Source: Scolanthus callimorphus (taxonomy: Eukaryota > Cnidaria > Anthozoa > Actiniaria > Edwardsiidae). Taken from it: a DNA stretch of 64,000 bases. The stretch spans positions 10,507,912 to 10,571,911 of the forward strand of contig CM066920.1 of assembly GCA_033964015.1 (NCBI GenBank). The letters run 5' to 3'. The position numbers were made by a program, and so were the translations under genes. Of this stretch, positions 29,803 to 64,000 are shown in pieces (the first letter of the stretch is position 1; each line of letters starts with the position of its first letter). The notes under the pieces are model-generated. The model saw only the letters and a program-made list of their open reading frames with translations. It had not been told where the DNA came from and searched no databases.

Positions 29803-30027
29803 CTCTCCTTGCGAATACTGCCAACTCGCAGATTGTCAAATACAACGCCTTGCCAATTGCCTGCACAGAGACGAACTTTCCGGGGATGGCTGGGGTGCAT
29901 TGTGATGTCCACAGCTCTCCCATATGGGTGCTCGGTATGCGGGCTCCGCACATCGGGTTTTCCTTGATTTCCTTCTCCATGCCAACACGAATCTCGAAGT
30001 TTGCCAACGCCTCGACTTTGTACCCAT
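29803..30027 (-). CDS. Gene B exon 31: F-type lectin domain, second half; possible 3' terminal exon
   Basis: Acceptor CCCTTTCCATAG, 225 nt, phase 1 entry. FEIRVGMEKEIKENPMCGAR, CTPAIPGKFVSVQAIG, LTICELAVFARRG. It ends at a good donor (GTAAGC). Reading through gives KLFH and then TGA. Whether another exon follows below 29803 is unresolved. Confidence 0.87.

Positions 30028-64000: not shown

What the first reader, a model, noticed from the sequence alone, without database searches (positions are those of the whole stretch)
29803..64000. Unusual domain string: LamG, PLAT, five TSP1, ~1,000 unknown residues, ricin trefoil, F-type lectin
Each module is well known on its own, but I recall no described protein with this combination. 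Two different lectin folds at one end and adhesion modules at the other suggest a secreted scaffold that bridges glycans and matrix.
Basis: partly seen in the sequence, partly recalled or inferred. Interest (0 to 1): 0.8.

Follow-up and report, generated by a model that had tools for sequence, protein, structure and literature searches.

The report
Anthozoan secreted TSP1–lectin mosaic gene
The string of modules is real and forms one gene that this animal carries in several copies and that the sea anemone Nematostella also has, so it is an old, unstudied family of probably secreted proteins, though one of its two lectin folds lacks the usual fucose-binding site.

Summary
Gene A (minus strand) was traced as 31 coding exons from 58,980 to a stop at 29,593: LamG, PLAT, five TSP1, about 1,020 residues without a Pfam family, a ricin-type trefoil and an F5/8-type (F-type lectin fold) domain, each above its Pfam cut-off.

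Added here: the unassigned region holds an amphipathic β part, also found in one otherwise unrelated protein, then a basic helical Cys-rich part with two conserved furin-type sites. The protein is probably cut into a LamG/PLAT/TSP1 chain and a lectin-fold chain. Single-base gaps shift frames in A, B and C; a haplotig comparison suggests that this assembly has such gaps, but decay of some copies is not excluded. The 5' end, expression and function are untested.

The parts
58779..58980 (-). Gene A exon 1 traced: Laminin_G_3, part a (5' exons upstream not found)
58096..58259 (-). Gene A exon 2: Laminin_G_3, part b
   Evidence: splice model; no tblastn hit of its own
55344..55619 (-). Gene A exon 3: Laminin_G_3, part c
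53849..53984 (-). Gene A exon 4: PLAT, part a
53103..53208 (-). Gene A exon 5: PLAT, part b
52166..52292 (-). Gene A exon 6: PLAT, part c
51550..51729 (-). Gene A exon 7: TSP1 repeat 1
50753..50923 (-). Gene A exon 8: TSP1 repeat 2
50486..50665 (-). Gene A exon 9: TSP1 repeat 3
49252..49422 (-). Gene A exon 10: TSP1 repeat 4
48498..48680 (-). Gene A exon 11: TSP1 repeat 5
45760..48015 (-). Gene A exons 12-14 (48015-47644, 47269-47066, 46118-45760): unassigned region, N-part (P0001 about 929-1241)
38815..45282 (-). Gene A exons 15-21 (45282-44971, 44608-44385, 43436-43337, 42796-42626, 42216-42082, 41467-41336, 39040 to about 38872 or 38815; the donors of the first and last are uncertain): amphipathic beta region (P0001 about 1242-1680), partly shared with P0002
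36995..38423 (-). Gene A exons 22-23 (about 38423-38198, 37192-36995): helical, Cys-rich, basic part with two furin-type sites (RKRR|S and RRKR|F)
36186..36408 (-). Gene A exon 24: Cys/helical part; a single-base frameshift in the assembly lies here
33959..34121 (-). Gene A exon 25: end of the unassigned region
31681..33304 (-). Gene A exons 26-28 (33304-33168, 32265-32109, 31812-31681): ricin-type beta-trefoil
29803..31159 (-). Gene A exons 29-30 (31159-30902, 30027-29803): F5/8-type C / F-type lectin fold domain, canonical fucose motif absent
29593..29702 (-). Gene A exon 31: conserved basic C-tail and stop codon
478..21851 (+). Gene B (paralog on the other strand, tail-to-tail with A): exons for P0001 residues about 1423-2297 and the stop inside the window; its LamG, PLAT, TSP1 and first unassigned exons lie upstream of the window, in L011-L013

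Best explanation
SHOWN by sequence: the stretch is one long gene (A) of a multi-copy family that Nematostella shares. It encodes a large mosaic protein: LamG, PLAT, five TSP1, a conserved region of about 1,020 residues, a ricin-type trefoil and an F5/8-type (F-type lectin fold) domain. INFERRED: it is secreted (by eye, the Nematostella relative begins like a signal peptide, followed by a stretch rich in Ser and Asn with 12 N-glycosylation sequons). It is cut by furin-type proteases at two conserved R-x-K/R-R sites into an N-chain (LamG, PLAT, TSP1 array, amphipathic beta region, helical part) and a C-chain (basic Cys-rich segment, ricin-type and F-type folds). It works as a multivalent extracellular recognition or adhesion protein at cell surface, mucus or matrix, like other cnidarian TSP1-plus-lectin proteins: the TSP1 array is the extended sticky stalk and the trefoil the likeliest sugar contact, while the F-type fold serves another ligand than fucose, or structure only. 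Likelihood by step: one gene 0.95; secreted 0.9; furin processing 0.65; recognition or adhesion role 0.45.
For: Nematostella LOC5511196 is one annotated protein with the same order; 30 of 31 exons of A match it in order. B and C repeat the order: Pfam finds LamG, five TSP1, ricin and F5_F8_type_C_2 above cut-off in both, while PLAT was seen only as exon similarity. D repeats it, with a PLAT exon at E 1.2e-4 and a diverged ricin part in three successive ORFs (HMM E 5.9e-5, 5.4e-4, 4.2e-3). Exon start phases agree in A, B and C at 23 of 28 comparable exons, in an automated model with known mis-picks. TSP1 cysteines: 29 of 29 kept in each of A, B, C; unassigned region 15, 13 and 13 of 16. A against B or C: pS 0.76, pN 0.33-0.34. 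B and C align over 13,637 bases in 39 islands, 28 of which overlap an exon (set). Furin-type sites: 2 in P0001's unassigned region, shuffle mean 0.14, maximum 3 of 2,000; both in A and B and C (first, second in the alignment); the second also in D (RGKR|F; the first was not looked for there). WxxWxxW occurs 4 times in each of P0001, A, B, C. Relatives in kind: Tsrp2 of Hydra and rhamnospondins of Hydractinia are expressed at the mouth, and rhamnospondins are proposed to bind microbes (passages of PMC4820225, and PMC5446238).
Against: No transcript, expression or binding data. By my count on six exon alignments, single-base gaps shift the frame in 1 exon of A, 3 of B and 4 of C, so some copies may be dying. 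B against C dN/dS is 0.47, weak constraint, on guided codons that include some misjoined positions. The 5' end of A is missing. The fucose motif is absent. No structure could be modelled (mean pLDDT 30.8). R-x-K/R-R sites also occur outside the region (one in the LamG of P0001, one in the tails of A and B, one in P0002), so a site alone proves nothing.
Confidence: 0.6

Rival explanations
1. Two neighbouring genes on the minus strand, a LamG/PLAT/TSP1 gene and a lectin gene, read as one.
For: The gene spans about 29 kb with long introns, and no transcript was seen. The in-phase joining is weak proof, because the model seeks it and bridged the frame-shifted exon with an implausible 32-base intron.
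Against: One annotated Nematostella protein spans both halves. The order repeats in A, B, C and D.
Confidence: 0.03
2. The copies in this genome are decaying pseudogenes; only relatives elsewhere work.
For: Frame-shifting single-base gaps, 1 in A, 3 in B, 4 in C (my count). B against C dN/dS 0.47. In the B-C islands, 29 of 67 one-base gaps are not in a run of equal bases, so true divergence is mixed in. Elsewhere this assembly keeps TSP1 frames of 2,101 and 2,102 codons open.
Against: 7 of the 8 gaps lie in or beside a run of two or more equal bases, by eye. In another TSP1 locus the main contig has two one-base gaps against its presumed haplotig, 99.7% identical over 3,783 bases, in which a frame of 1,113 codons is open; this is one locus, and a true allele difference is not excluded. 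A shows one break over about 5.7 kb at saturated synonymous distance.
Confidence: 0.12
3. It is mainly a carrier of lipid or other hydrophobic cargo: the amphipathic beta region forms a lipid-binding sheet or groove, PLAT touches membranes, and furin cuts it as in apolipophorins; the lectin folds are for docking.
For: P0001 1241-1680 shows strand-like amphipathic periodicity, z 6.0 against shuffles, and P0002 2150-2640 z 5.9. PLAT is present and furin-type sites are conserved. The apolipophorin comparison is recalled.
Against: No lipid-transfer family in the Pfam results; best PDB sequence match of the region E 0.22; no usable model.
Confidence: 0.2
4. It is a structural protein of mucus, mesoglea or skeleton matrix without a recognition role.
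For: LamG and TSP1 are named among core-matrisome signature domains (passage of PMC12549020). The fucose motif is lost.
Against: Several copies and two sugar-binding folds fit recognition at least as well. The passages read do not name this protein, and supplements were not seen.
Confidence: 0.25

Closest known systems
Nematostella vectensis uncharacterized protein LOC5511196 (P0001)
   Same: Same modules in the same order; 50% identity over the searched region; same C-tail
   Different: Low-complexity N-terminus of about 290 residues seen there, not found here. Named in 0 papers of the held library.
Rhamnospondins (Hydractinia) and Tsrp2 (Hydra)
   Same: TSP1-array proteins of cnidarians with a lectin domain (passages of PMC4820225, and PMC5446238)
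   Different: Their lectin is of the rhamnose/galactose-binding type, which is not in the Pfam results here; LamG, PLAT, ricin and F-type folds are not mentioned for them in those passages.
Hydra proteins with a ConA-like lectin/glucanase domain and one TSR
   Same: ConA-like domain joined to TSP1 (passage of PMC4820225)
   Different: A single TSR; no other modules mentioned in the passage.
Cnidarian-type polydom and polydom-like proteins of Nematostella
   Same: A figure legend lists ricin B-like, coagulation factor 5/8, pentraxin and TSR domains for the group (PMC12549020)
   Different: Built on vWFA, EGF, Sushi, hyalin and ephrin-type domains, none in the Pfam results here.
Properdin
   Same: The TSP1 repeats of P0001 match properdin best in the PDB (E 2.4e-45)
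   Different: Properdin holds TSRs only besides its signal sequence (passage of PMC5446238).

Membership tests
F-type (fucose-binding) lectin | F-type lectin domain by sequence | tested here: met
   C-part of P0001 to FBP32 E 5.5e-30 and eel agglutinin E 4.2e-15; Pfam F5_F8_type_C_2 over cut-off in A, P0001, B, C, F5_F8_type_C under its cut-off in all four
F-type (fucose-binding) lectin | Fucose motif HX24RXDX4(R/K) | tested here: not met
   No match at spacings 22-28 in P0001, A, B, C, 0 of 4 (the B string runs into an intron there, but the B exon pieces lack both Arg too). First His kept in P0001, B, C, Arg in A; both Arg positions lost in P0001. Motif from PMC5712786 section 8
Ricin B-type lectin | Beta-trefoil domain by profile | tested here: met
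   Ricin_B_lectin 53.5 (A), 41.7 (P0001), 47.5 (B), 49.3 (C), cut-off 29; in D only diverged pieces, own HMM E 5.9e-5 at best
Ricin B-type lectin | QxW in each of three subdomains (recalled) | tested here: inconclusive
   Three Trp in A and P0001, one of them an exact QxW; none exact in the gapped reading of B
PLAT/LH2 domain | Profile above cut-off | tested here: met
   Pieces: A 29.3, P0001 27.4, cut-off 23. Whole P0001: 21.4, just under. No PLAT hit in the gapped B and C readings
Rhamnospondin | TSP1 array plus rhamnose/galactose-binding lectin | tested here: not met
   TSP1 array present; that lectin domain not in the Pfam results of A or P0001
Polydom (cnidarian type) | vWFA, EGF, Sushi, hyalin core | tested here: not met
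   None in the Pfam results of A or P0001
Thrombospondin proper | Type 3 repeats and C-terminal TSP domain (recalled) | tested here: not met
   None in the Pfam results of A or P0001
Furin-processed secreted protein | Cleavage at R-x-K/R-R sites shown | not testable with these tools
   Sites present; cleavage needs protein

The most novel reading that the evidence does not exclude
The unassigned region of about 1,020 residues is an undescribed domain family: an amphipathic beta module that also occurs near the end of an otherwise unrelated, Pfam-less protein of 2,736 residues (P0002), joined to a basic helical segment with furin-type sites. On it these animals have built a multi-copy, two-chain secreted recognition system, in which TSP1 plus the beta module is the constant core (seen in all five loci, A to E) and the lectin-fold end is the fast-changing part (fucose site lost, trefoil diverged in D, no clear lectin fold in the stretch of E that was read).
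Probability: 0.3. Interest if true: 0.6.

Novelty: new variant of a known kind. Interest (0 to 1): 0.42.

Why it matters
Cnidarian TSP1 and lectin proteins are proposed to mediate contact with symbionts and microbes. This family combines more such modules in one chain than the described cases that I found, is shared by Nematostella and this genome, is multi-copy here, and carries a large conserved part that Pfam and NCBIfam do not explain. It turns an 'uncharacterized protein' into testable questions: is it cut into two chains, what does an F-type fold without the fucose site bind, and does the beta region hold lipid?

Tried and rejected
Rejected: that P0002's seven repeats of about 280 residues are relatives of the unassigned region. 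An HMM of the seven copies scored the real sequence at -1.9, below the best shuffles (4.1). The main match is P0002's C-end, 2282-2596.

Rejected: that the 63.4-64.0 kb frame is gene A's N-terminus. It ends in a stop, and its only similarity to P0001 is E 1.6 in low-complexity sequence.

Led nowhere: relatives of the unassigned region alone, 0 at E <= 1e-3 among 7,989 scored candidates; viral and prokaryote contigs, no relative among 164 and 147 pattern matches, each by two short patterns; PDB by sequence, best E 0.22; AlphaFold on P0001 1121-1678 with two exon rows, pLDDT 30.8, so no fold search was made. A many-exon alignment came out garbled and was not used. A self-comparison of P0002 printed nothing. 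A search of the own genome with P0002 did not complete.

Limits: the second automated exon model mis-picked some TSP1 exons. The guided readings of B and C drop insertions, have gaps, and run into introns at places. E was read only over G000:C8:25874001-25892000. The lectin end of D was seen only as tblastn and HMM pieces. The organism was not identified; 'anthozoan' rests on the Nematostella match. No supplements were read.

Full report
WHAT WAS CHECKED. The window is G000:C10:10507912-10571911 of a 597 Mb genome. A splice model with GT-AG ends and phase control joined them into 1,929 residues without a stop. That model seeks phase agreement; it split one frame-shifted exon in two with a 32-base 'intron', and it lacked the third PLAT exon. 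Later calls corrected this (22, 28, 93, 95, 96). The final list of 31 coding exons, from 58,980 to the stop at 29,593, was put together by hand. The donors of the exons at 45,282 and 39,040 are uncertain.

DOMAINS. Pfam finds TSP_1 (5 stretches), Ricin_B_lectin, Laminin_G_3 and F5_F8_type_C_2 above cut-off in gene A, and PLAT once all three exons are used (29.3, cut-off 23). The Nematostella protein gives the same set, with PLAT at 21.4 in the whole-protein scan and 27.4 on the piece alone. PDB sequence matches support the TSP1 repeats (properdin, thrombospondin-1) and the F-type fold (FBP32, eel agglutinin).

ONE GENE. A protein search with residues 600-1500 of the model returned one protein at E <= 0.001 among 7,986 scored candidates: P0001, Nematostella LOC5511196, 2,297 residues, 50% identity. 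30 of the 31 exons match it in order from residue 292 to 2296. On the plus strand, in the window and upstream of it, lie two more copies, C then B, in the same module order; B and A meet tail to tail. In B and C, Pfam finds LamG, five TSP1, ricin and F5_F8_type_C_2 above cut-off, but no PLAT in these gapped readings; PLAT is seen there as exon similarity. A genome search with the beta region gave 17 matches: 13 on C10 (A, B, C), 2 on C3 (locus D), 1 on C8 (locus E) and 1 equal-scoring on C24, probably its haplotig. D holds, in the same order, LamG-like pieces, a PLAT piece (E 1.2e-4), five TSP1, the unassigned region, a diverged ricin part and the F-type domain. E, read over 18 kb, shows two TSP1 and the unassigned region; no clear ricin or F-type match followed within the stretch read, and one weak F-type-like match (E 0.004) lies among other exons. 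One annotated protein and four loci with the same order make two separate genes very unlikely.

THE UNASSIGNED REGION. P0001 929-1952 has no Pfam family, and the whole protein no NCBIfam family. The first part (930-1240) shows no strand-like periodicity (z 0.0) and some helix-like (z 2.2). The middle (1241-1680) alternates hydrophobic and polar residues as beta strands do (z 6.0), and so does P0002 2150-2640 (z 5.9). The last part (1690-1952) is helix-like (z 5.3) with net charge +23 (all). P0002, 2,736 residues, unnamed source, no Pfam family above cut-off, matches P0001 1271-1613 at 26% identity; it also matches D (E 4e-11) and E (E 2e-4). The last part of the region holds two R-x-K/R-R sites, shuffle mean 0.14, maximum 3 of 2,000. 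Both are kept in A and B and C (first, second), and the second in D. AlphaFold gave no usable model.

LECTIN FOLDS. The fucose motif of F-type lectins (PMC5712786, section 8 read whole, other passages) was searched at spacings 22-28 in P0001, A, B and C: 0 of 4. P0001, B and C keep the first His; A has Arg. Both Arg positions are lost in the alignment of P0001 to eel agglutinin. By sequence the domain belongs to the F-type family; by the fucose motif it does not qualify. The trefoil keeps three Trp in A and P0001, one in an exact QxW.

ARE THE COPIES ALIVE? On six exon alignments I count frame-shifting single-base gaps in 1 exon of A, 3 of B and 4 of C; 7 of these 8 lie in or beside a run of equal bases (by eye). 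In another TSP1 locus the main contig differs from its presumed haplotig by 9 mismatches and two one-base gaps over 3,783 bases, and the gaps break a frame of 1,113 codons that is open in the haplotig. So such gaps occur in this assembly, but one locus is a small control, an allele difference is not excluded, and TSP1 frames of about 2,100 codons elsewhere are unbroken. In the B-C islands there are 25 one-base gaps in B and 42 in C, 29 of the 67 not in a run. A against B or C is saturated at synonymous sites (pS 0.76) with pN 0.33-0.34; B against C has dN/dS 0.47, from guided codons with some misjoined positions.

HOW IT MAY WORK. Shown: order, conservation, cleavage-type sites, loss of the fucose motif. 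From knowledge of the families (recalled): TSP1 arrays are extended and bind matrix, receptors or microbes; furin-type sites in secreted proteins are often cut. Inferred: a secreted two-chain protein for recognition or adhesion. The nearest described proteins are rhamnospondins and Tsrp2 (passages of PMC4820225 and PMC5446238) and polydoms with ricin-like and F5/8 domains (passages of PMC12549020). None has this set in the passages seen.

NOVELTY. One library was searched, nine times; 5, 21 and 52 returned 0 papers, the others listings. Passages of four papers were read and no supplements or figures. I call it a new variant of a known kind, the cnidarian TSP1-plus-lectin mosaics. The unassigned region may be a new domain family; that is the novel case.

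Noticed in passing
window 56059-57871: A 70-bp tandem array, about 26 copies, in the intron between LamG exons 2 and 3 of gene A.
   Followed up: no
window 7358-10944 (+): A LINE-type element with PHD finger, endonuclease and reverse transcriptase domains in two overlapping frames, inside an intron of gene B.
   Followed up: partly
window 24309-25220 (+): An open rhodopsin-family GPCR frame of 304 codons between the tails of genes A and B.
   Followed up: no
window 63431-64000 (-): An Asn/Gln/Pro-rich reading frame ending in a stop, in two frames that seem to join near an A-run; perhaps the last exon of a neighbouring gene.
   Followed up: partly
L026 (G000:C4:20169900-20174400) and L027 (G000:C38:151200-155900): Presumed haplotig pair of a TSP1 gene; the main contig has two single-base gaps that break a frame of 1,113 codons. 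Gene calls on this assembly may be affected elsewhere.
   Followed up: partly
P0002: A protein of 2,736 residues and unnamed source with seven repeats of about 280 residues and no Pfam family above cut-off; its C-end carries the beta region.
   Followed up: partly
G000:C3:37535095-37536024 (-), in L040-L041: In locus D the segment like P0001 1825-1849 occurs in several nearby frames, as if locally duplicated.
   Followed up: no
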